Shown here piece after piece: positions 37,348 to 49,947 of a DNA stretch of 64,000 nucleotides (within the stretch, counting starts at the first letter, position 1; each line of letters opens with the position of its first letter). A model generated the notes under the pieces. It was not told the DNA's origin and searched no databases. It saw only the letters and a list, made by a program, of their open reading frames with translations. Location of the stretch: assembly GCA_027592925.1 (NCBI GenBank), contig JAQCJO010000003.1:1-64000 (forward strand), written 5' to 3'. This stretch comes from Actinomycetota bacterium (GTDB taxonomy: Bacteria; Actinomycetota; Acidimicrobiia; Acidimicrobiales; Ilumatobacteraceae). Made by a program: the position numbers and the translations under genes.

Positions 37348-38352
37348 GTGGCACGCGACTTAGCAATTGACCTTGGTACCGCAAACACCCTTGTGTACAT
37401 GGAGGGGCGCGGCATTGTTATCAATGAACCTTCCGTGATTGCTGTCAATAAGCGCACAGGTGAGGTGCTTGCAACGGGTCAAGAAGCCTGGAGCATGATC
37501 GGTCGCACGCCTGGGTACATCGTTGCGGTCCGCCCATTACGTGGTGGCGCAATTACCGACTTCGAGATCACCGAAAAGATGATCAGATTGCTGTTGCAAC
37601 GCGCTGGTGTCTCACGATTTTCACGACCCAAGGTGCTGATTTGTGTGCCGTCGGCAATCACCGAGGTGGAGCGACGCGCGGTAACCGACGCAACTCGTCG
37701 CGCAGGCGCTGCCGATGCACAGTTACTGGAACAACCAATGGCTGCTGCCATCGGTGCGGACTTGCCGATCAATGAACCTGTTGGCAACCTCGTTATTGAT
37801 ATCGGTGGCGGCACCACAGAGACCGCAGTGATCAGTCTTGGTGGAATTGTCGCGCTTGAAGCAGTGCGTGTTGGCAGTTTCGACATTGATGCAGCGATTC
37901 AGTCATATGTGCGACGCGAACATGGTCTTGCAATCGGTGAGCGCACCGCAGAAGAGATCAAGATCTCGATCGGTAGCGCAATGGCAACACCCGAAGACCG
38001 CGACGCCGAGGTGCGTGGTCGCGATCTTGTTTCAGGATTGCCAAAGACGGTGGTGCTGACATCGAGTGAAATTCGTGTCGCGATCGATGATGTTGTGACG
38101 CAGATGGTCAACTCGGTCATTCGCTGCCTGGCCTCTGCGCCGCCAGAGCTGTCACAAGATTTTCTTACTCGTGGCATGTACTTGGTCGGCGGTGGCTCGA
38201 TGTTACGCGGTTTGGCTCGGCGAATCGAGCGCGACACACAAGTGCCTGTCAATATGTCGACAGAACCGCTTGAAGCAGTTGTGCTTGGTGCTGGTCACTG
38301 CGTCGAAAACTTTGCAGCCCTGCGCGGGTTGTTCATGGATTCACGCCGCTAG
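37348..38352 (+). CDS. mreB: MreB/Mbl-type rod shape-determining protein
   Basis: LAIDLGTANTLVYMEGRGIVINEPSVIAV; VIDIGGGTTETAVISLGGIV; GTG start. Confidence 0.95.
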   Translation: MARDLAIDLGTANTLVYMEGRGIVINEPSVIAVNKRTGEVLATGQEAWSMIGRTPGYIVAVRPLRGGAITDFEITEKMIRLLLQRAGVSRFSRPKVLICVPSAITEVERRAVTDATRRAGAADAQLLEQPMAAAIGADLPINEPVGNLVIDIGGGTTETAVISLGGIVALEAVRVGSFDIDAAIQSYVRREHGLAIGERTAEEIKISIGSAMATPEDRDAEVRGRDLVSGLPKTVVLTSSEIRVAIDDVVTQMVNSVIRCLASAPPELSQDFLTRGMYLVGGGSMLRGLARRIERDTQVPVNMSTEPLEAVVLGAGHCVENFAALRGLFMDSRR

Positions 38353-39200
38353 ACGAGACGCGCAAGACCTTCTTGCACGACAGTGACAACAAGTTTTCCA
38401 TCCCGAGTAAAAATATGCCCCTCGGCCATGCCACGTGAATTGGATGTGGAGATAGACGACTGCTGATAGAGCAACCAGTCGTCGGCGCGAAACTCACGAT
38501 GAAACCACATTGCATGATCGAGGCTGGCGAGTTGTAGCGAACCATCGGCGAGCGATCGACCATGGGGCAAAAGTGCAGAGTCGAGCAATGTCATGTCGCT
38601 TGCGTAGGTAACGATGCACGCATGCAAGACGTTGTCGTCCGGAAGTTTTCCGTCGGTGCGAAACCAAACGCGTTGGCCTGGTTGCGGATTGCCTCTGCGC
38701 GTAAACGGGTTGCCGTCTACATAACGCATGTCAATCGGACGTGGCCTGTCATACCAGTCGCCAAGTTTTTCTTTGTACGGTTCCATCAACGACTTGAAGT
38801 CGGGAAGTGAGTCTGCATCAGGTACATCGGAAGGCATTGCGATCTGGTGCTCGAGCCCTGGCTCTGCTTTTTGAAAACTGGCCTGCACATTGAAAATCGC
38901 TTTTCCATGCTGAATTGCAACCACGCGGCGAGTCGAGAAGCTCTTTCCATCACGAATGCGGTCCACCTCATACAAGATCGGCACACCGGGGTCGCCTGAG
39001 CGCAAAAAATATGCGTGCAACGAGTGCACCATGCGACCCGGCTCATCGATCGTGCGGGCTGCAGCCACAAGAGCTTGCCCAGCCACCTGACCGCCAAACA
39101 CTCGTTGGCGATTTTCGTCTGGTGACTGACCGCGGAAAATATTGACCTCTATGGTTTCGAGGTCGAGCAATGTGATGAGGTCTTGAAGGGGTTTACTCAC
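38349..39200 (-). CDS. tesB: Acyl-CoA thioesterase II (TesB-like)
   Basis: QRVFGGQVAGQALVAAARTI, SLHAYFLRSGDP, SLDHAMWFHREFRADDWLLY; GTG start. Confidence 0.92.
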   Translation of the reverse strand: MSKPLQDLITLLDLETIEVNIFRGQSPDENRQRVFGGQVAGQALVAAARTIDEPGRMVHSLHAYFLRSGDPGVPILYEVDRIRDGKSFSTRRVVAIQHGKAIFNVQASFQKAEPGLEHQIAMPSDVPDADSLPDFKSLMEPYKEKLGDWYDRPRPIDMRYVDGNPFTRRGNPQPGQRVWFRTDGKLPDDNVLHACIVTYASDMTLLDSALLPHGRSLADGSLQLASLDHAMWFHREFRADDWLLYQQSSISTSNSRGMAEGHIFTRDGKLVVTVVQEGLARLV

Positions 39201-39255
39201 CCTTCCATAATGCCAGCAATAGGTCGGGTGTGTGTGTCCGACTAGCGTGAATTTC

Positions 39256-40491
39256 ATGACAAGTGCGAATACTGCTTCAACATCATCAAACCCACTTTCT
39301 TTTCCTGCCGGATTTACGTGGGGAACTGCGACGGCTGCCCACCAAGTGGAAGGCAACAACTGGAATAACGATTGGTGGGATTGGGAACATCGTGTTGGCA
39401 CGCGCGTGAAAGAGCCAAGCGGAGACACCTGCGATCACTACAACCTGTATCCACAAGATATTGCGATGCTCGCCAAGTTGGGTTTCGACAACTATCGATT
39501 CAGTGTTGAGTGGAGTCGCATCGAGCCGGAAGACGGAGAGTTTTCTCAAGCCGAGATCAATCACTACCGAAAAGTTTTGGAAGCCTGTCACGAACACAAC
39601 ATCACACCGGTTGTGACACTGCATCACTTCACCACACCACGTTGGGTTGCAGCACAGGGCGGATGGGTAAATGATTCAACTGCAGATTTGTTTGCTCGTT
39701 TTTCGGAAAAAGTTGCTCAGTCGCTCGGTGATGGAGTTGGCAAGTGGTGCACTATTAACGAACCCAACATGGTCTCGACCATTGGGTATTTGCTCGGTGA
39801 GTTTCCACCTGGCACAAAGTCGCGCGAAGCACGCAAAAAAGCAAACGAAGTGTTTTGTCAGGCACACATAAAAGCGCGTGACGCAGTGAAGTCAATTTCG
39901 AGTGCTCCGCTTGGCATCACGCTGGCAATGCAGGAGTACACCATCAATGTCGATGACGAGTCACATCGCGCTACTGCTGAAGGCAAACGCGACATGGCAT
40001 GGGACGGCCTTGAAGACTGCTTTTTGGAAGTGGCTAAAGGCGACGACTATTTCGGTGTGCAGACATATACGCGCGAGCGTTTCAATCAAGACGGTCGCAT
40101 TTTGCCTGATGCAGATATGCGCAGGACGATCATGGGCTACGAGTTCAGGCCACAAGCGCTAGAAGCATGCATTCGTCGTGCGTGGGACAAGACGGGCCAT
40201 GTGCCGATCATTGTTACCGAAAACGGTATTGCCACGAGCGATGATGCCGAGCGAATCGAATACGTGCACGGCGCGCTTGAAGGATTGCTCAACTGCATCC
40301 AGGACGGAATTGACATTCGTGGTTACACGTATTGGAGCCTGATGGACAATTTTGAGTGGATGTATGGATACGGTCCAACATTCGGAATCGTTGCAGTCGA
40401 CTGGAAGACACAAGTGCGTACGCCACGACCAAGTGCATCTTGGCTTGGGCGTATTGCTCGCGGCAACGCACTGCTTCCGCGCAATGCGTAG
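39256..40491 (+). CDS. GH1 beta-glucosidase-like glycoside hydrolase
   Basis: FTWGTATAAHQVEGN; WCTINEPN acid/base; VTENGIA nucleophile; YTYWSLMDNFEWMYGY. Confidence 0.95.
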   Translation: MTSANTASTSSNPLSFPAGFTWGTATAAHQVEGNNWNNDWWDWEHRVGTRVKEPSGDTCDHYNLYPQDIAMLAKLGFDNYRFSVEWSRIEPEDGEFSQAEINHYRKVLEACHEHNITPVVTLHHFTTPRWVAAQGGWVNDSTADLFARFSEKVAQSLGDGVGKWCTINEPNMVSTIGYLLGEFPPGTKSREARKKANEVFCQAHIKARDAVKSISSAPLGITLAMQEYTINVDDESHRATAEGKRDMAWDGLEDCFLEVAKGDDYFGVQTYTRERFNQDGRILPDADMRRTIMGYEFRPQALEACIRRAWDKTGHVPIIVTENGIATSDDAERIEYVHGALEGLLNCIQDGIDIRGYTYWSLMDNFEWMYGYGPTFGIVAVDWKTQVRTPRPSASWLGRIARGNALLPRNA

Positions 40492-40506: not shown

Positions 40507-41148
40507 GTGACCAAACTCAGTGGTGAACGACGCACGATTGCTATTGAGACAACTGGGTTTATGCCAGAGGTTGAAGGAGATGCTCTCTTTGTTGCGGCGC
40601 TAGGTGCTGGAAAAGCTTGCCCTGGTTTACCGATGGTTGAAATTGGCTCGTACTGTGGCCGCAGCACCGTGTGGCTTGGTGCAGCAGCCGAAACCTGTGG
40701 CACATTGCTGTTTGCGGTTGATCACCACGGCGGATCAGAAGAAAACCAGATTGGTTGGGAGTGGCACGACCCAACATTGGTCGACGCGTCAACAGGTCGA
40801 CTCAATACGTTGCCGCATTTTGAAAAAACTATGAGCCGTGCGCGGCTCACCGACACGGTGCGAACTGTTGTCGGAGACTCGCCAACAATTGCAAGTACCT
40901 GGACGCAACAAATCGCGATGTGTTTTATTGATGGCGGCCATGCCCGAGATGTTGCGGCAAACGATTATGCAGCGTGGAACGGACATATTGCACTGGGTGG
41001 CATCTTGGCAATCCACGATGTGTTTACTGATCCGGCACTTGGCGGCCAGGCTCCCTATGAAGAGATTTATCTAGCAGCAATAAATGGCGGCAAGTTTGCA
41101 GATGTGAGCGCAACTGGGTCGCTGCGTGTGCTCACACGTGTGAAATAA
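40507..41148 (+). CDS. Class I SAM-dependent methyltransferase (CmcI/methyltransferase-24-like)
   Basis: MVEIGSYCGRSTVWLG; CFIDGGHARDVAANDYAAWNGHIALGGILAIHDVF. Confidence 0.8.
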   Translation: MTKLSGERRTIAIETTGFMPEVEGDALFVAALGAGKACPGLPMVEIGSYCGRSTVWLGAAAETCGTLLFAVDHHGGSEENQIGWEWHDPTLVDASTGRLNTLPHFEKTMSRARLTDTVRTVVGDSPTIASTWTQQIAMCFIDGGHARDVAANDYAAWNGHIALGGILAIHDVFTDPALGGQAPYEEIYLAAINGGKFADVSATGSLRVLTRVK

Positions 41149-41174
41149 AAACGTCTCGAAACCGGAATCAGTTT

Positions 41175-42227
41175 TTAGTCAAGCACAGTTGATGCGCCAA
41201 ATATTTGGCTTGCTGCGGTGTCGCCACTAATTGCATTGGCAGCCAAGATCACTGCGGCACCGGTGTACGCACTGCACTCGTCGGCAGGAAACACAATGCG
41301 ATCTGGGTAAACAATGCCGGTGAGGTATGCGCCGCTCTCAGTGCGGTGCGCGTTTGTCCACGACAACAATTGTTTTGCAGTGTCAATGTTGCCGATGGCA
41401 GAGTGAGCAAGCGAGCATTCTGCTGTTTCTGCTGCAGTTACCCAATCTTCGTCATTGACGCAACGCACGCCACGAGACGGGATCACGAATTCATCCCACT
41501 GCATGGCAATGCGGGTCTTTGCTTCGGTGCCAGTTAACGCACCAGTGAGCACGGGGTAGTACCAGTCCATTGCCCAGCGCAGTTTTGGCTCGAAAGCAGC
41601 GAGGTTGGTGTTGATGATTTCGTCAAGTGTGTCGGCGGCAGCGCGCCACTCGGGTTGCGAATCACCAACTATTGCTCCAATGTTTGCTGCGCAATGCAGT
41701 GCGTGGCGGATAGACGAACAGCCAGTCAGCAATGCATAGTCCCAAGGGTTTGCGTTCACTTCGCGAGCCCACAAGATGGTGCCGTCTGGGCGACGCATTG
41801 CCAGCACCCATTCCATTGCACGCTTGACCGCTGGCCACATGCGCGCAACAAATTGTTTGTCGTTGGTGCTCATCCAGTGGTGCCACACTCCGGTGCCGAT
41901 GTATGCGCACACGTTGGTGTCAAGTTTGGTTTCTTCAACTGATCCGTCTGGCAAGTAGTAGTTAAACCAACTGCCATCTTCGCGTTGCACCGAGGTCAAC
42001 CATTCGTATGCTCGTTGCGCCTGATCATGCAAACCCATCACGTCGAGAGCCATTGCGGTCTCAACGTGATTCCATGGGTCGCAGTGTCCACCAACAAACC
42101 ACGGGACCATGCCATTTGAGAGTTGCAATGATGCAATGGACTGAGCGGTTGCACGCAACTCTTCTTGCGTGATCACATCGTCAAGATTATCGCCGAGATG
42201 GCTACCGAGAAGTTCGTTATTTGGCAT
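41175..42227 (-). CDS. Alpha/alpha-toroid protein (often annotated prenyltransferase/glycosidase-like)
   Basis: SNGMVPWFVGGHCDPWNHVETAMAL; AYEWLTSVQREDGSWFNYY; AMEWVLAMRRPDGTI repeats. Confidence 0.75.
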   Translation of the reverse strand: MPNNELLGSHLGDNLDDVITQEELRATAQSIASLQLSNGMVPWFVGGHCDPWNHVETAMALDVMGLHDQAQRAYEWLTSVQREDGSWFNYYLPDGSVEETKLDTNVCAYIGTGVWHHWMSTNDKQFVARMWPAVKRAMEWVLAMRRPDGTILWAREVNANPWDYALLTGCSSIRHALHCAANIGAIVGDSQPEWRAAADTLDEIINTNLAAFEPKLRWAMDWYYPVLTGALTGTEAKTRIAMQWDEFVIPSRGVRCVNDEDWVTAAETAECSLAHSAIGNIDTAKQLLSWTNAHRTESGAYLTGIVYPDRIVFPADECSAYTGAAVILAANAISGDTAASQIFGASTVLD

Positions 42228-42948
42228 TGCTCACCGGCTTCATTGAGTACACCACATAACTTTTGCCAAGAACTGGCGCAAGCACTTGTTCGGCCACTTG
42301 TGTCACTTTTGGTTTGGAGATGATGTCCCATTCCAAAAACTTTTTGTATGCGTTGACCATGCGGTTGTCTTCGCGCGCAGGACCAACAGCGCAGCGCAGC
42401 CACCAATACGGCGAGTGCAATCCGTGGGCGCGATGCTGACCAACGACGCGCAAACCAGCCGCACGCAACTTTGCCTTGAGTTCGGTGCCGCTATAAATGC
42501 GCACATGGCCACCGACTACAAATGGCGCGTGGTATTCATCTGACAACATCCAGTTGATCTTTTCGGGAAACCATGACGGCACGGTGGCGCCAAGTGTGCC
42601 GCCCGGCTTGAGTACGCGAGCGAGTTCACTCAGTGCAGCTACATCATTTTGAATGTGCTCGAGCACTTCAGAAGTGACAATGCAATCAAACGAGTTTTCG
42701 GCAAAAGGCAAGCACGTGGCATCGCCGCGCAACACACCCACGAGGTTTTCGGCCATGATCTCGCCGGCTTCGTACATGGCGCTAAAAGTTGCGCGCATGG
42801 CGACTACTTCTTCTTGGGCGTAGTCGAGTGCAATAACTTGCGCACCAAGGCGTGCGGCTTCAAATGCGTGACGACCAAAGCCTGCTCCGGCATCGAGAAA
42901 CAGCGTGCCAGGTCCTATAGAGAGTTCGCTAAAGCGCACGGTCAGCAT
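42217..42948 (-). CDS. Class I SAM-dependent methyltransferase
   Basis: FLDAGAGFGRHAFEAARLGAQVIALDYAQ; FDCIVTSEVLEHIQNDVAALSELARVLKPGGTLGATVP. Confidence 0.92.
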   Translation of the reverse strand: MLTVRFSELSIGPGTLFLDAGAGFGRHAFEAARLGAQVIALDYAQEEVVAMRATFSAMYEAGEIMAENLVGVLRGDATCLPFAENSFDCIVTSEVLEHIQNDVAALSELARVLKPGGTLGATVPSWFPEKINWMLSDEYHAPFVVGGHVRIYSGTELKAKLRAAGLRVVGQHRAHGLHSPYWWLRCAVGPAREDNRMVNAYKKFLEWDIISKPKVTQVAEQVLAPVLGKSYVVYSMKPVSNAK

Positions 42949-42951
42949 TGG

Positions 42952-44244
42952 TTATTTGCTATCTCGCCGTTGAAGTTTTTTGACGTTGTGTGGCATCGAA
43001 AGAACTTCTTTGTATTGATCGACAGTGAGTGCTGCACAATGGCGCCAGCTCCAGCGCTCGACCACGCGGGCTCTGCCTGCAGCACCAATGCGATCTCGCA
43101 ACTCTTTGCTATCAAGACCGCGACGAATCGCTGCCGCCAAGGCTTCGGCGTCGCCCGCTGGGCACGACAACACCGTGTCGTTGTCGACGCCTGTCACTTC
43201 GGGGAGCGCGCCACCCGTAGTTGCAACCAAACACGTGCCAGTCGCCATTGCTTCGATTGCGGGGAGACTAAATCCCTCGTACAAACTTGGCACTACTGCG
43301 AGCTCGGCTTCTGCATACAACTCAACAATGCGTTCGTCGGAGACCCCGGAAACGTGCGTGATGCAATCTTCAAGACCAAGCGAACGAATCATGTCGGCGT
43401 TTGCGCCTTCGCGTGGCTTGCCAATGATGGTCAGGTGCACCTCGCGCTCGGTGCGCAATTTGGCAAGAGCTTCGAGTAAATATGAAAGACCTTTGAGAGC
43501 GACATCAGCGGAGGCAGTGGTGATCATGTGTCCTGGCTTGCGCTGCACCGTTGGCTTGGGGGAGAACAACTCGTGATCAACGCCAACTGGCACAAGTCGC
43601 ATGCGGTCGAGCGACACTTTCATGTCGGTATGAATGTCGTCGATTGAGTTTTTGCTGACCACAACAACGCGCGGCATCTTGCTTGCAACTTTGCCTTGCA
43701 TCTCCACAAACGAATACCAGCGACCAATGGCTTTGCGCTTCCACCAAGTTGGCGTGTGTTCCATCTCGAGCTTGCGATCTTTGGTGATGGGGTGATGCAA
43801 AGTCACGATTGTCGGAATGATTTTTTCAATCCTGAGGATGCCGTATCCGAGGCACTGATTGTCGTGCACAATGTCAAAATCGTTGACGCGTGTTTTGAGA
43901 GCGCGGTGTGCTCGGATGCTGAACGAGCGTGGCTCACCAAACGTGCCTTTAAGAAACTGTGCTGACTCAACAAAGTTCGGCCAGTCGTTGATCTCCCAAT
44001 ATGCGGGGAAGCGACCAGGGTGAGCATCGTTAAAAATGTCGAGGCTTGGCAATTGATGTAGTTGCACTCGCGGATCAAGAATTGGGTATGGCTGTCCGCC
44101 AAAAACTTCCACATGATGACCGAGATCGGCAAGTGCTTTGGTGAGGTGTCGCGTGTACACGCCCTGACCGCCCACGTGCGGCTTGCCGCGATACGTCAAA
44201 TAGGCAATACGCAACGGGCCGTTGGGGTCGAACGGCGTTGTCAT
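42952..44244 (-). CDS. Glycosyltransferase family 4 (GT-B)
   Basis: RIAYLTYRGKPHVGGQGVYTRHLTKALADLGH; VVPSLYEGFSLPAIEAMATGTCLVATTGGALPEV. Confidence 0.93.
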   Translation of the reverse strand: MTTPFDPNGPLRIAYLTYRGKPHVGGQGVYTRHLTKALADLGHHVEVFGGQPYPILDPRVQLHQLPSLDIFNDAHPGRFPAYWEINDWPNFVESAQFLKGTFGEPRSFSIRAHRALKTRVNDFDIVHDNQCLGYGILRIEKIIPTIVTLHHPITKDRKLEMEHTPTWWKRKAIGRWYSFVEMQGKVASKMPRVVVVSKNSIDDIHTDMKVSLDRMRLVPVGVDHELFSPKPTVQRKPGHMITTASADVALKGLSYLLEALAKLRTEREVHLTIIGKPREGANADMIRSLGLEDCITHVSGVSDERIVELYAEAELAVVPSLYEGFSLPAIEAMATGTCLVATTGGALPEVTGVDNDTVLSCPAGDAEALAAAIRRGLDSKELRDRIGAAGRARVVERWSWRHCAALTVDQYKEVLSMPHNVKKLQRRDSK

Positions 44245-44260
44245 AGCCGTACCACTCTAC

Positions 44261-45088
44261 CTAGGGGTAACCGAGTGCAGTCAGACGGAAATAGCGCGTC
44301 AGTGGATGGTCTGGGGATACCACCAACGGTTCGGAGTTGAGTCCGTTTGGTGGACCGGATTGCGGTTCTACACAGATTGCGTGCGACGGCTCGTTGTACA
44401 CGACCCAGTGGCTGCAGTCGCTCTCGAGGCGCACTACAAGTCCGTTCTCATATTTCAGCAATGGTGCGGAAAGGGCATCGGTAAAACAGTCATCAAGTGG
44501 TCCATGCATCAAGTCGTGTTGTTGCTGCACACGTTGCACACGTTGTGCACTAGCGATGCCGTCACTGTCGCGTACGTACATTGTTTTGAATTCGGCCTCA
44601 AGTTGCACTGGTCGCACAAACCACGGGTGCCAACCAACTTGTGCTGGCATTGAATTTTTTTCATCGCTGCGGTCGATCGCGTGCACGGTGAGTTGTAGGT
44701 TCACCGATGTTGAGTCGACACTGATGCGATGTTCAACCCACCCGGCAAAAGGCCACCGCTGATCGAGATCGACTCGCAAAGTTGCGCTTGTTGGCGAAGA
44801 ATTTACCACTTGCCATGCAGCGTCATGCACAAGACCATGAATTGCATGTGGGGGAGAGTTGATGGGCAACTGCACACTCGTGCCTTGGTACTCAAATATT
44901 CCATTGCGTGTGCGGCCAGCCCACGGAGCCATCGGGTAACAGCCCCACGAAAACGAATCATCATGTGTGCGCTGCACCAATAGCTCTGTTTCACCAAACC
45001 GCACGCTCGAAAGCCGTGCTCCATGCTCTGCGTCGATGACGGTTTCAACATTGCCAGACGAAAGCGTGATCATGTTGCTGCTGTTCAT
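44261..45088 (-). CDS. Aldose 1-epimerase family protein
   Basis: GCYPMAPWAGRTRNGIFEYQG; HAIHGLVHDAAWQV; QVGWHPWFVRP. Confidence 0.9.
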   Translation of the reverse strand: MNSSNMITLSSGNVETVIDAEHGARLSSVRFGETELLVQRTHDDSFSWGCYPMAPWAGRTRNGIFEYQGTSVQLPINSPPHAIHGLVHDAAWQVVNSSPTSATLRVDLDQRWPFAGWVEHRISVDSTSVNLQLTVHAIDRSDEKNSMPAQVGWHPWFVRPVQLEAEFKTMYVRDSDGIASAQRVQRVQQQHDLMHGPLDDCFTDALSAPLLKYENGLVVRLESDCSHWVVYNEPSHAICVEPQSGPPNGLNSEPLVVSPDHPLTRYFRLTALGYP

Positions 45089-46563
45089 GCTCGAGTTGTG
45101 CGCCGACCAGCGATCAGTAGGGCAAGCAGCGAAGCAATCATGATCAAAATAAAAGGCATATCACCAAGGTACGAATAGATGGTGCGGCCAGAACGCAACT
45201 GCACTTCTCGGGTAATGACGCGCTGCTCACTCACACCAGTGCGGTCAAACACTTGACCACTTGGTGAAATAAATGCAGAGAAGCCCGTTGGTGAAACTTG
45301 CACCAGCCAACGACCGGTTTCTAATGCGCGCAAGCGAGATGAAGCAATTTGTTGGGTTTGCAATATTGTGCCCGTGTAACTCGAGCCATTCGTTGGGTTC
45401 ACCAGCAACGTTGCCCCACGCTCAACACCTTCGTTTGCGCGTCCTGCAAAAAAGACTTCCCACGAAATAACAACTGCAATGGTGGTGTCTGCGGCCCGAA
45501 GTATGGCTGTATCTTTGCCCGCCTGCGCATCGCGAGGGATTCTGTCTACTGGTGCTCCAACGGCTTCGAGCAACCCGCGCATCGGTACAAACTCACCAAA
45601 CGGCACGCGTCGCACTTTGTCGTAGCGATTTCCAATCGAACCATCAGTGTTCACTACAGCTTGAGCGTTGGTAAAAAATCTGTTGTCGAAATCTTCGGTG
45701 ATGCCAACAAGAAATGGCGCATCAAGTCTCGCCGCTTCGGCTGCGACTTCGGTGCGCTCGATGCTGGATGAAAAACTGCTCACATCAATGACATTTTCAG
45801 GCCAGACGACTAAGTCCAAATTGTTGTCAGTTGTGACAGATCCTCCAGCAATTGTCCGAGTCGCGTCAAGGTGCCGAACAACTACATCGCGACTGTTGGT
45901 GTTGATTGCCAACGTGCCTTGTGGGCCGCCACCCTGCACCGCAGCAATAGTGAGTGAACGACCAATGTCGTGTCCATGCGGAGCGATCAAACCAGCAATG
46001 GGCAAAATGGCGACTACAACAACTGCGATGAGTGCTGCATGCACTGCGCGCTTGGGCGTTTTAGTTTCGCGAAGGTCTGCTAGCAAAAAGCCAATCTGTA
46101 ACACGATGTAGGTGAGGAGCAGTGGGCCACCCACTCGCACAATGGGTGCGAGTGGCGATGCAGCTTGTGAGATGGCAAGTGTTGCAAGTGGTACGCCACC
46201 AAACGGAAATGAAAATCGCAATGCTTCTGCAAGTGTGTGCGCAAGCGGACCAACTACTGCTCGATGTTTATGTTGATCGTTAACAGCACCGGTGATCATC
46301 GCTGCGATGCCGTGGAGTGCCGAAAACAGCAATGCTGCAATCACATATCCCGGCGCTGTAAGAAACCACATCCAAGCCATGCCCGGTGCCAGCCAAGCGA
46401 GCGCAAACAGTGTGCCAAACATAAATCGAGCACGATTGCTAGTTGGTTTGATTGTCGTAAAGAGTGCAACTCCTAAATAGGCGAGCGGCCACCATCCCCA
46501 CGGCGGAAGGCTGAGGGCAACGAGCGACCCTGCAATGAGTGCTACAAGGGATTGTTTTTTCAT
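45085..46563 (-). CDS. lnt: Apolipoprotein N-acyltransferase homologue
   Basis: LPPWGWWPLAYLGVALF; VVWPENV; YDKVRRVPFGEFVPMRG; VVISWEVFFAGRA (Ser at expected Cys). Confidence 0.88.
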   Translation of the reverse strand: MKKQSLVALIAGSLVALSLPPWGWWPLAYLGVALFTTIKPTSNRARFMFGTLFALAWLAPGMAWMWFLTAPGYVIAALLFSALHGIAAMITGAVNDQHKHRAVVGPLAHTLAEALRFSFPFGGVPLATLAISQAASPLAPIVRVGGPLLLTYIVLQIGFLLADLRETKTPKRAVHAALIAVVVVAILPIAGLIAPHGHDIGRSLTIAAVQGGGPQGTLAINTNSRDVVVRHLDATRTIAGGSVTTDNNLDLVVWPENVIDVSSFSSSIERTEVAAEAARLDAPFLVGITEDFDNRFFTNAQAVVNTDGSIGNRYDKVRRVPFGEFVPMRGLLEAVGAPVDRIPRDAQAGKDTAILRAADTTIAVVISWEVFFAGRANEGVERGATLLVNPTNGSSYTGTILQTQQIASSRLRALETGRWLVQVSPTGFSAFISPSGQVFDRTGVSEQRVITREVQLRSGRTIYSYLGDMPFILIMIASLLALLIAGRRTTRA

Positions 46564-47975
46564 GAGTGCAGTTCGCTGAGTGCGCGTGATGCTGCACGTT
46601 GGCCATCATTGATGCATGCGGGAATACCAATGCCGCGGTAACTTGCGCCAGCCAATACAACACCAGGTGCAGATGCGTGCAATTGTTTGTCGAGTGTTTC
46701 GACCCTGTATTCATGTCCTGGTCGGTATTGGGGAAACGATTCGATCCATCTCGTGAATCGCATGTTGGTGGGTGCTGCATCGAAACCAAGATGCAAACGT
46801 AGATCGCGTAGTGCAACTTCTAGCAAGGCCTTGTCGTCAAGGTGATGCATCGGTGCGCCGTCACGTCCAAGCGAAACTCGCAAGATCATCTCATCGCTGG
46901 CGGTTTTCCAGTGTGCCCATTTGTTTGAGCCAAATGAAACCGCAGTAACACCAGTTTGTACTGGTTTGGGCACAAGATAGCCAGATCCAGTGAGGTGTTG
47001 TGGCCACTGTGACCGCGAAATGGTCAGTGCAATCATGATCACGGATGCATGCTCAAACTGTTGAAGTTGCGTGGATGTTTCGCTGCTGAGCTGTTTGACA
47101 AGTGCTGCAGTGTGACGGGCAGGACTCGCCAAAACAACTGCGTCTGCGGGCAACGATTCGGTTTCAAGATGCACTACATACGAGCGACCTTGGGGTTCGA
47201 TACTGCGTACCGGAGATGAAAGAATCACGCGCCCACCGTCTTCAACAATTCGGTCGCGCACCGCTCGAGTGAATGCGCTCATGCTGGTAATTGGTGTTGC
47301 GAATACTGGGCCACCACTCGTGCGCTTTTGCATTGAATTGCGTGCCGCACGCATGAGGCTTGTCGGCTGCGCCAAGAGCTCGGCCACTTGGGGCATGCCT
47401 TGCACACTGAAATTATCGGTATCAGTTGCATAGATGCTTCCAACAAGTGGGTCGACAAGGCGCTCCAGCACTTGGTTGCCGCAACGACTACGAATTGCAG
47501 CACCTAACGAATCGGTTGATCGACCAATTGCGCGGGGAAGAAATGGTTCGACAGATGCTCGCAATTTGCCAGACTTTGTAAGTAACTGCGTGTTCCAGAT
47601 GGCTTTGTGCGAACCAGGCACGCCAAGCACGGTGCCCGTTGGAATTGCGTGCATGTTGTTGTTCCAGATGTAGGCATGATTGGTAGCAGGTGAAGTGAGG
47701 TGATGATCAAGACCAACTGCCGCACAGAGTTTCATTGCTGCTGGAGTGCGCGTCAAAAATGCATCAGCCGATTCGTCGACTAAATCCAGCCCAGCAAATG
47801 GTGATGCCTGGATAATGCCGCCAATGCGGTCGGCGGCTTCAACGATGGTGACTCGCGGTGGATGAGGTTGCTGCAGTAATTGATGAGCAGCAGCAAGACC
47901 AGTGATGCCTGCGCCAACGATAACGACGTGCCGATCGCTGAAGTTTTGAGCAACGGTCGTGTTGTCGATTGACAT
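46560..47975 (-). CDS. hemY: Protoporphyrinogen/coproporphyrinogen III oxidase (HemY/CgoX)
   Basis: VVIVGAGITGLAAAHQLLQQ; GVVLAGASYRGIGIPACINDGQRAA. Confidence 0.92.
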   Translation of the reverse strand: MSIDNTTVAQNFSDRHVVIVGAGITGLAAAHQLLQQPHPPRVTIVEAADRIGGIIQASPFAGLDLVDESADAFLTRTPAAMKLCAAVGLDHHLTSPATNHAYIWNNNMHAIPTGTVLGVPGSHKAIWNTQLLTKSGKLRASVEPFLPRAIGRSTDSLGAAIRSRCGNQVLERLVDPLVGSIYATDTDNFSVQGMPQVAELLAQPTSLMRAARNSMQKRTSGGPVFATPITSMSAFTRAVRDRIVEDGGRVILSSPVRSIEPQGRSYVVHLETESLPADAVVLASPARHTAALVKQLSSETSTQLQQFEHASVIMIALTISRSQWPQHLTGSGYLVPKPVQTGVTAVSFGSNKWAHWKTASDEMILRVSLGRDGAPMHHLDDKALLEVALRDLRLHLGFDAAPTNMRFTRWIESFPQYRPGHEYRVETLDKQLHASAPGVVLAGASYRGIGIPACINDGQRAASRALSELHS

Positions 47976-47986
47976 TGCAAACGACT

Positions 47987-48898
47987 TTACAATGCGCTCA
48001 CAACACGTTGCGCAAGTGCGCTCATCACTGTTGAATCATCATTCACACAAGCAGTGCGACTGAAGCTCAGTCCCAATTTGTCAGCATGTCGCGCTGCTTC
48101 AATGTCGAGGTCATACAACACCTCTAAGTGATCGGCCACAAATCCAACTGCACTCACCAATACGCCGTCTGCGCTGCGTTGTGCAGCAATGTCGTCGATG
48201 GCAATCAAAATGTCTGGACCAATCCATGGTTCTGGAGTTCGACCGGCAGATTGCCAAGCAATGTCCCAGTCCGAATGCTCGACTAGACCGAGTTGTTTGG
48301 CTACAGCAGTTGCTGTTGCGTGCAACTCGGTTGGATATGGGTCGCCGCCATCGATAATTCGCTGTGGCAGGGAGTGCGCTGTGAATAACACGCGAGTGCG
48401 AGTTGGCATTGCCGCCAACTTTTGTTTCATGTCGGCAGCAATGAAGTCGACAAAGGCTGGCTCGATGGCCCACGAATTAATACCGACTACTTCAACTCCG
48501 TGTGGCTTTGCTGCCTCGGTGGCACGACCAACATATTGTCCAATTGAATATGAAGAAAAGTGCGGTGCAAGCACGAGCGCAATGATTTTGGTGAAACCCT
48601 GTTGCGCTAAATCATCTACTGCTGTCTCAATCATTGGTGCCGCATGTTTGAGACCCAACTGCACATGAAATTGGCCGGGGATAAGACCATCTAACGCACG
48701 TTGAAGCGCATCTCGTTGTGCCTCGGTGCGCGCGGCCAGTGGGGAGATGCCGCCAATTGCGTCGTAGCGAGCCACCAAGTCGGCAAGTTGTTCATCGGTT
48801 GGTGCGCGACCGCGTCGAATGTCGGTGTAATAAGGAAGGATCTCTTGCGTACTGCGCGGAGTGCCGTAGGCCATCAATAAAACAGCTGTGCGGTTCAT
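47987..48898 (-). CDS. hemH: Ferrochelatase (protoporphyrin or coproporphyrin type)
   Basis: VLLMAYGTPRSTQEILPYYTDIRRGR; LFTAHSLPQRIIDGGDPY; SAVGFVADHLEVLYDLDIEA. Confidence 0.94.
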   Translation of the reverse strand: MNRTAVLLMAYGTPRSTQEILPYYTDIRRGRAPTDEQLADLVARYDAIGGISPLAARTEAQRDALQRALDGLIPGQFHVQLGLKHAAPMIETAVDDLAQQGFTKIIALVLAPHFSSYSIGQYVGRATEAAKPHGVEVVGINSWAIEPAFVDFIAADMKQKLAAMPTRTRVLFTAHSLPQRIIDGGDPYPTELHATATAVAKQLGLVEHSDWDIAWQSAGRTPEPWIGPDILIAIDDIAAQRSADGVLVSAVGFVADHLEVLYDLDIEAARHADKLGLSFSRTACVNDDSTVMSALAQRVVSAL

Positions 48899-49947
48899 GA
48901 GCTAGTCCTTTCGTGGACATGTTGTACTACTGCCGTTAACACATCTGGGTTTACGCCAGGTGTTACACCATGACCGAGATTAAAAATATGACCAGGATGA
49001 TTGGCATTGTCGGCGAGCACTGCGTCTGCACCCTTGAGTGCGGTAGTGATATCGCCTTGTACGAGTGATGGATCTAAATTTCCTTGAATGATGGTGTCTT
49101 TGCCAAGACGTGCGCGAGCATCGACAATTGATGTGCGCCAATCGAGTCCCATCACTGTTGCCCCTGCAGAATGCATTAATTCGAGCAGGTGATCGCAACC
49201 AACACCAAAGTGAATCGATGGTGCGTGAGGGTGAGAGCGTTTCAATTCACTGATCACGTGTGCAGAGTGCGGCAAGACTGCGTCGCGATATTGATCCTGC
49301 GTCAAATTTCCTGCCCACGAATCAAAGAGTTGGTATGCACTCGCACCGGCGTCAAGCTGGCTGCGTAGAGACGCAACAGCATGTTGTGCGAGTCGCTGCA
49401 TCAAGTCGTGCCACAACTGTGATTCAGCCGTCATCATTTGTTTGGTTATCAGATGATCGCGGCTCGGTTTGCCTTCAACCAGATAACTGCCAACAGTAAA
49501 TGGTGCACCAGCAAATGCGAGCAGCGGAACCTTGAGTTCGCTTGCCAACATGCGAACGGTTTCAAGTACGTACGGCGTGTCGGTTTCTGGTTCAAATTCG
49601 CGCAGTCGTTGCAAGTCTGCATGAACGCGAAATGGTTGTTCGGCAACTGGTCCAGTACCCGGAGCAACGTCAATTCCAAAACCAACTGCATGTGCTGGCA
49701 CAACGATGTCGCTGTACAACACTGCCGCGTCGACTCCGTATCGAGTTACGGGTTGCAATGTGATGTCTGCGGCAAGTCGGGGTTGTTTGATTGCATCCAA
49801 GATGCTGCCCTCACCGCGAATTGCGCGATACTCGGGCAAACTTCTGCCTGCTTGACGCATGAACCACACGGGCGTGTGACTGATTCGCTTGCCCGAAGCT
49901 GCCGCAAAAAATGGACTGAGTGCCGTGTCTTGCGCTGCAGGGCTCAT
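48895..49947 (-). CDS. hemE: Uroporphyrinogen decarboxylase
   Basis: HTPVWFMRQAGRSLPEYRAIR; LFDSWAGNLTQDQYRD; VLADNANHPGHIFNLGHGVTPGVNPD. Confidence 0.96.
   Translation of the reverse strand: MSPAAQDTALSPFFAAASGKRISHTPVWFMRQAGRSLPEYRAIRGEGSILDAIKQPRLAADITLQPVTRYGVDAAVLYSDIVVPAHAVGFGIDVAPGTGPVAEQPFRVHADLQRLREFEPETDTPYVLETVRMLASELKVPLLAFAGAPFTVGSYLVEGKPSRDHLITKQMMTAESQLWHDLMQRLAQHAVASLRSQLDAGASAYQLFDSWAGNLTQDQYRDAVLPHSAHVISELKRSHPHAPSIHFGVGCDHLLELMHSAGATVMGLDWRTSIVDARARLGKDTIIQGNLDPSLVQGDITTALKGADAVLADNANHPGHIFNLGHGVTPGVNPDVLTAVVQHVHERTSS

What the first reader, a model, noticed from the sequence alone, without database searches (positions are those of the whole stretch)
40507..44244. Candidate methylated-polysaccharide cluster: GT4 + two methyltransferases + alpha/alpha-toroid protein
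Four contiguous genes encode a CmcI-like SAM methyltransferase (+ strand), an alpha/alpha-toroid protein, a second SAM methyltransferase and a GT4 with an E-x7-E motif. From memory, this composition matches the methylmannose polysaccharide (MMP) cluster of non-tuberculous mycobacteria (mannosyltransferase ManT, methyltransferases MeT1/MeT3, hydrolase MmpH). It also resembles the GT4/methyltransferase set used for methylglucose lipopolysaccharides. Here one methyltransferase is convergent to the other three. A GH1 gene lies next door, and the three minus-strand genes continue downstream of galM/lnt/heme genes. If genuine, this suggests an O-methylated intracellular polysaccharide in a non-mycobacterial actinobacterium. 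Family composition is seen in sequence; the link to MMP is inference.
Basis: partly seen in the sequence, partly recalled or inferred. Interest (0 to 1): 0.72.

Follow-up and report, generated by a model that had tools for sequence, protein, structure and literature searches.

The report
Methylmannose polysaccharide genes in freshwater Acidimicrobiia
A small-genome aquatic actinobacterium carries, in the same order, the four genes that mycobacteria use to build an unusual methylated mannose polymer, and most of its relatives do too although they lack the fatty-acid enzyme this polymer is thought to regulate.

Summary
The finding holds. Three of the four genes match the solved enzymes of the mycobacterial methylmannose polysaccharide (MMP) pathway end to end: MeT1 (E 5.8e-56), MmpH (E 3.2e-95; predicted fold TM 0.94 to 7qsj) and ManT (E 8.3e-118). 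The fourth is 47-52% identical to the protein at the pMeT3 position of mycobacterial-type clusters. Gene order, and meT1 running convergent to the other three, is the same as in mycobacterial-type genomes. Across 397 Actinomycetota genomes MmpH and MeT1 occur together in 63 (one has MmpH only, two MeT1 only; p about 1e-69). MmpH is in 144 of 296 Acidimicrobiia genomes, including 72 of 74 from other families of the same order. The reference paper surveyed mycobacteria and a few relatives only. Three things go beyond it. First, 52 of 64 MmpH genomes, this one included, lack fatty acid synthase I, the proposed target of MMP. Second, catalytic-acid candidate Asp47 is invariant in 161 homologues while Asp50 is Asn in all Acidimicrobiia examined, which favours Asp47. 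Third, seven relatives have MeT3 and MmpH fused in one frame, linking pMeT3 to the pathway. The product is inferred; no chemistry was done.

The parts
40507..41148 (+). meT1: MMP reducing-end 1-O-methyltransferase (213 aa)
   Evidence: phmmer to 6g7d (MeT1 structure) E 5.8e-56 over residues 11-212; co-occurs with MmpH in 63 of 64 genomes
41175..42227 (-). mmpH: MMP alpha-(1->4)-endomannosidase (350 aa)
   Evidence: phmmer to 7qsj E 3.2e-95; AlphaFold2 model pLDDT 93.7, Foldseek TM 0.94 to 7qsj, most others at or below about 0.77; Asp47, Asn101, Glu262, Glu265 positions kept, Asp50 to Asn
42217..42948 (-). pmeT3: putative MMP 3-O-methyltransferase (243 aa)
   Evidence: 47-52% identical to the protein between mmpH and manT in mycobacterial-type loci L147-L155; fused in frame to MmpH in seven relatives
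42952..44244 (-). manT: GDP-mannose-dependent alpha-(1->4)-mannosyltransferase, GT4 (430 aa)
   Evidence: phmmer to 7qsg E 8.3e-118 over the whole length; catalytic His142, Lys240, Glu313, Glu321 positions kept
39232..40491 (+). GH1 beta-glucosidase-like gene, 15 bp upstream of meT1; accessory at most
   Evidence: TIGR03356 E 1.3e-90; same place in relatives of several families (L182, L183, L196) but absent from most loci
38349..39200 (-). TesB-type acyl-CoA thioesterase II, divergent from GH1/meT1 (start re-set by homology; the mechanical ORF starts at 39428)
   Evidence: PF02551 E 2.9e-43; divergent and within 2.6 kb of meT1 in 48 of 48 close-relative loci with enough flank, not in all families

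Best explanation
The four genes are a complete MMP biosynthesis cluster. Inferred working, by analogy with M. hassiacum: ManT adds alpha-(1->4)-linked mannose from GDP-mannose to methylated oligomannosides; MeT3 3-O-methylates the added units; MeT1 caps the reducing end with a 1-O-methyl group; MmpH cuts mature chains into fragments that prime new chains. The cluster looks old and vertically inherited in Acidimicrobiia rather than recently acquired from mycobacteria. Since the cell has a FAS-II type gene and no FAS-I, the polymer's role here cannot be FAS-I control; binding acyl-CoA or acyl lipids, perhaps in the cold, is the likeliest remaining role. Shown: homology, fold, catalytic residues, synteny, co-occurrence, absence of a FAS-I marker. 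Inferred: product, enzyme specificities, physiological role.
For: Full-length matches to the three solved MMP enzymes and to the pMeT3-position protein. MmpH model superposes on 7qsj with TM 0.94. Identical order and convergent meT1 in mycobacterial-type loci L147-L149. In 33 divergent loci MmpH, MeT3 and ManT recur in all and MeT1 in 29; the other widely recurring clusters inspected were antisense shadows or lineage-limited neighbours. MmpH/MeT1 co-occurrence: 63 both, 1 and 2 alone, 331 neither. In-frame MeT3-MmpH fusions. Likely GDP-mannose supply in the same genome: a mannose-1-phosphate guanylyltransferase-like protein and a phosphomannomutase-like protein on contig C66. The tree places mycobacterial-type and other actinomycete sequences apart from Ilumatobacteraceae sequences. 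MMP mechanism from PMC9883506.
Against: No chemistry. MmpH differs from M. hassiacum at residues lining the subsites: Asp50 to Asn, Phe102 to Val, Trp315 to Tyr, so substrate detail may differ; Asp50Ala cripples the mycobacterial enzyme (PMC9883506). MeT3's activity is unproven even in mycobacteria. In some relatives meT1 sits elsewhere in the genome. The two GDP-mannose enzymes score below NCBIfam cut-offs.
Confidence: 0.88

Rival explanations
1. A sister pathway: the same enzyme set makes a related but different O-methylated mannan (other chain length, methylation pattern or acylation) in Acidimicrobiia, as Streptomyces griseus makes an acetylated MMP.
For: Consistent active-site changes in MmpH of the class: Asn for Asp50, mostly Tyr for Trp315 and Val for Phe102. 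GH1 next to meT1 in several families. A variant product is known from S. griseus (PMC9883506).
Against: The catalytic pair Asp47/Glu262 and the ManT donor-site residues are kept; no additional gene is tied to the cluster phylum-wide.
Confidence: 0.25
2. Methylglucose lipopolysaccharide (MGLP)-type cluster making an O-methylated glucan.
For: GT4 plus methyltransferase composition is superficially similar.
Against: The GT4 matches ManT at 8e-118, far ahead of any glycogen-synthase-type enzyme; the toroid matches MmpH, not the MGLP enzymes; no GpgS-type match over the curated cut-off in this genome.
Confidence: 0.03
3. Chance neighbourhood of generic sugar enzymes, or a surface-glycan cluster.
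For: Methyltransferases and GT4 enzymes are common and often cluster.
Against: Specific full-length orthology of each gene, phylum-wide co-occurrence and gene fusion; no polymerase, flippase or exporter next to the genes.
Confidence: 0.02

Closest known systems
MMP biosynthesis cluster of Mycobacterium hassiacum / M. smegmatis (meT1-mmpH-pmeT3-manT; Maranha et al. 2023, PMC9883506)
   Same: Same four genes, same order and the same convergent meT1 as in mycobacterial-type genomes; about 45-52% protein identity; catalytic residues of MmpH (Asp47, Glu262) and ManT (His142, Lys240, Glu313, Glu321) kept.
   Different: Host is a small-genome freshwater-type acidimicrobial actinobacterium without FAS-I; MmpH Asp50 is Asn, Trp315 is Tyr, Phe102 is Val; in several relatives meT3 and mmpH are fused or meT1 has moved away.
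Acetylated MMP producer Streptomyces griseus (as cited in PMC9883506)
   Different: meT1 lies several kb from mmpH in those genomes; acetylation genes were not traced.
GH15 / GH125 (alpha/alpha)6-barrel glycosidases
   Same: Overall barrel fold of MmpH (PMC9883506).
   Different: Low sequence identity (8-15%); the model is far closer to MmpH (TM 0.94) than to any other fold relative (at most about 0.77).

Membership tests
MMP biosynthesis cluster | MmpH endomannosidase homologue with Asp47 and Glu262 | tested here: met
   7qsj E 3.2e-95; both residues invariant in 161 homologues including the window
MMP biosynthesis cluster | ManT GT4 with Glu313/Glu321/Lys240/His142 | tested here: met
   7qsg E 8.3e-118; residues kept
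MMP biosynthesis cluster | MeT1 1-O-methyltransferase | tested here: met
   6g7d E 5.8e-56
MMP biosynthesis cluster | pMeT3 between mmpH and manT | tested here: met
   position and 47-52% identity
MMP biosynthesis cluster | Conserved order meT1-mmpH-pmeT3-manT | tested here: met
   window and 45 of 60 close-relative loci holding MeT1 have meT1 convergent and adjacent to mmpH; same in L147-L149
MMP biosynthesis cluster | Asp50 of MmpH (important for activity in M. hassiacum) | tested here: not met
   Asn in the window and in all Acidimicrobiia examined; Asp50 was one of two candidate acids, the other (Asp47) is kept. A residue variant, not a feature that defines the cluster
MMP biosynthesis cluster | GDP-mannose supply in the cell | tested here: inconclusive
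   guanylyltransferase-like and phosphomannomutase-like proteins found, both below curated cut-offs
MMP biosynthesis cluster | Production of alpha-(1->4)-3-O-methylmannan | not testable with these tools
   needs extraction and mass spectrometry/NMR
MGLP biosynthesis | GpgS (Rv1208-type) over the curated cut-off | tested here: not met
   best match 43.2 bits against a cut-off of 262

The most novel reading that the evidence does not exclude
MMP is an old actinobacterial polymer whose original role is independent of FAS-I and mycolate metabolism; Acidimicrobiia, common in lakes and oceans, make a version processed by an Asn50-type MmpH, and its conserved divergent neighbour, an acyl-CoA thioesterase, works with it in handling acyl-CoA.
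Probability: 0.3. Interest if true: 0.72.

Novelty: new member of a known kind. Interest (0 to 1): 0.55.

Why it matters
MMP was proposed to regulate FAS-I on the basis of in-vitro work (PMC2674218), and its known distribution was mycobacteria plus a few relatives. The cluster is near-universal in one order of Acidimicrobiia, and 142 of 144 MmpH-bearing genomes of the class sample lack FAS-I, so FAS-I control cannot be its general function; that makes an open question testable in organisms that lack the confounding system. The natural Asp50-to-Asn switch points to Asp47 as the catalytic acid of MmpH, which mutagenesis left open, and the MeT3-MmpH fusions are independent evidence that pMeT3 belongs to the pathway.

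Tried and rejected
MGLP reading: rejected on GT4 and toroid identity and no GpgS over cut-off. A fifth phylum-wide cluster gene: none; of the recurring ORF clusters those inspected were mostly antisense shadows (11, 21, 22, 37) or lineage-limited neighbours. TesB as a core gene: close to meT1 in every close relative with enough flank but missing near the cluster in several other families, so only a lead. GH1 as a core gene: in a minority of loci. ManC beta-helix family PF22640: no match, but the C. glutamicum control does not match it either, so uninformative. Horizontal transfer from mycobacteria: not supported by the tree. The PNAS paper on MeT1 is not held, so MeT1 residues could not be checked against the published active site.

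Full report
Observation. The four ORFs exist as described. Families: Methyltransf_24, alpha/alpha toroid, Methyltransf_11 and GT4. manT, meT3 and mmpH are packed (gap 3 bp, overlap 11 bp) and follow galM by 16 bp; meT1 follows GH1 by 15 bp and converges on mmpH with a 26 bp gap. The window belongs to a 1.66 Mb genome, 98.5% complete. Its closest named relatives (95% identical MmpH) are MAGs labelled Acidimicrobiaceae, Ilumatobacteraceae or Acidimicrobium, mostly with names that suggest lakes, so it is inferred to be a freshwater Ilumatobacteraceae-type acidimicrobial bacterium.

Identity of the parts. A sequence search of the PDB returns for the toroid one hit only, MmpH of M. hassiacum (7qsj, E 3.2e-95, residues 16-344). 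The + strand methyltransferase hits 6g7d, taken as MeT1 from prior knowledge of that entry (E 5.8e-56). The GT4 hits 7qsg, which is ManT deposited under another name (prior knowledge; E 8.3e-118; the ManT residues described in PMC9883506 fit its sequence). The AlphaFold2 model of the toroid (pLDDT 93.7) superposes on 7qsj with TM 0.94 and rmsd 1.4; other folds are GH-type barrels at 0.77 or less. The second methyltransferase has no solved close relative, but is 47-52% identical over its length to the protein between mmpH and manT in mycobacterial-type loci. Its model (pLDDT 91.2) is closest to small-molecule methyltransferases that include the sugar O-methyltransferases RebM and AtmM.

Conservation. 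Among the 80 nearest loci in named genomes, 59 hold all four genes and 20 hold mmpH-meT3-manT without meT1 in the stretch fetched. In genomes where meT1 is not adjacent it is usually found elsewhere (regions). In a sample of 397 Actinomycetota genomes MmpH is in 64 and MeT1 in 65; 63 have both, 331 neither (Fisher p 9e-70; related genomes are not independent, so the p-value is nominal). In 296 Acidimicrobiia genomes MmpH is in 144: all 22 of the same family, 72 of 74 of other families in the same order, 50 of the remaining 200 (counted by hand). The order meT1> mmpH< meT3< manT< is the same in mycobacterial-type genomes (L147-L149), recognised as such by up to 86% identity to M. hassiacum MmpH and by FAS-I. 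In 33 loci spanning the phylum MmpH, MeT3 and ManT are in all and MeT1 in 29; the other recurring clusters inspected are antisense shadows or lineage-limited neighbours. A concatenated tree of MmpH, MeT3 and ManT sets the mycobacterial-type and most other actinomycete sequences apart from Ilumatobacteraceae, compatible with vertical descent; several deep nodes have weak support.

Residues. In 161 MmpH sequences (some loci are repeated at two lengths) Asp47, Trp49, Asn101, Met215, Tyr219, Glu262 and Glu265 are invariant. Asp50 is Asp in the mycobacterial-type and most other actinomycete sequences and Asn in every acidimicrobial one, with a few Asn cases outside the class (L157, L158, L159, L166). 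PMC9883506 found both Asp47Ala and Asp50Ala severely impaired and could not say which is the acid. The natural replacement of only Asp50 favours Asp47. Trp315 is mostly Tyr and Phe102 mostly Val in this class, so substrate detail may differ. ManT keeps His142, Lys240, Glu313 and Glu321.

Fusion. In seven relatives (L006, L047, L071, L072, L073, L080, L109; L006 and L071 may be the same lineage) meT3 and mmpH form one open frame of 585-600 codons with a short linker. This is independent evidence that the still putative MeT3 acts with MmpH.

FAS-I. The reference hypothesis is that these polysaccharides bind acyl-CoA and regulate FAS-I (PMC2674218). A FAS-I marker (PF08354, found in the C. glutamicum control) is in 16 of 397 phylum genomes; 12 of the 64 MmpH genomes have it and 52 do not. 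There is an association (p 1e-7), but it comes from mycobacterial-type genomes and a few near them. In Acidimicrobiia it is in 2 of 296, both of which carry MmpH. This genome has no match to it, and has a FabF split over two contig ends. FAS-I control therefore cannot be the general role of MMP.

Supply and neighbours. A mannose-1-phosphate guanylyltransferase-like protein (best family NF052502, E 3e-74) and a phosphomannomutase-like protein (PRK09542, E 3e-169) are encoded on contig C66; both are below the curated cut-offs. A TesB-type acyl-CoA thioesterase lies divergently upstream of meT1 in 48 of 48 close-relative loci with enough flank, and stays with meT1 in G027, G039 and G067, where meT1 is separated from mmpH; in G110 it is next to mmpH instead. 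In several other families it is not near the cluster. Retained ancestral synteny explains this as well as function does.

Literature. In the open library 13 papers name methylmannose polysaccharide; no paper holds both 3-O-methylmannose and Acidimicrob-; the reference survey covered 162 mycobacterial and related genomes. Subscription papers are not covered, so prior mention cannot be excluded.

Verdict. This is a new lineage carrying a known pathway, with one informative active-site substitution and a distribution that bears on what the polymer is for.

Noticed in passing
L006, L047, L071, L072, L073, L080, L109: meT3 and mmpH form one open frame of 585-600 codons: a natural MeT3-MmpH fusion in a group of relatives.
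   Followed up: partly
window 38349-39200: TesB-type acyl-CoA thioesterase, divergent from GH1/meT1, within 2.6 kb of meT1 in 48 of 48 close-relative loci.
   Followed up: partly
window 39232-40491: GH1 beta-glucosidase-like gene 15 bp upstream of meT1, with TINEP and VTENG motifs; found at the same place in several acidimicrobial families and missing in most.
   Followed up: partly
G173 C143:73920-74918 and G187 C1:1678176-1679186: Two Acidimicrobiia genomes of one family carry a roughly 3,000-codon FAS-I-type frame, rare in the class (2 of 296).
   Followed up: no
window 44261-49947: hemE-hemH-hemG-lnt-galM run straight into manT-meT3-mmpH with gaps of at most 16 bp or overlaps, so the MMP genes may be co-transcribed with heme and lipoprotein genes.
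   Followed up: no
G000 C46:30871-31725 and C76:3-287: fabF is split over two contig ends in this assembly.
   Followed up: no
L161 (G014), G130, G211, G267: Family f2 of the same order has much more divergent MmpH (32-38% identity) and, in L161, divergent MeT3 and MeT1.
   Followed up: no
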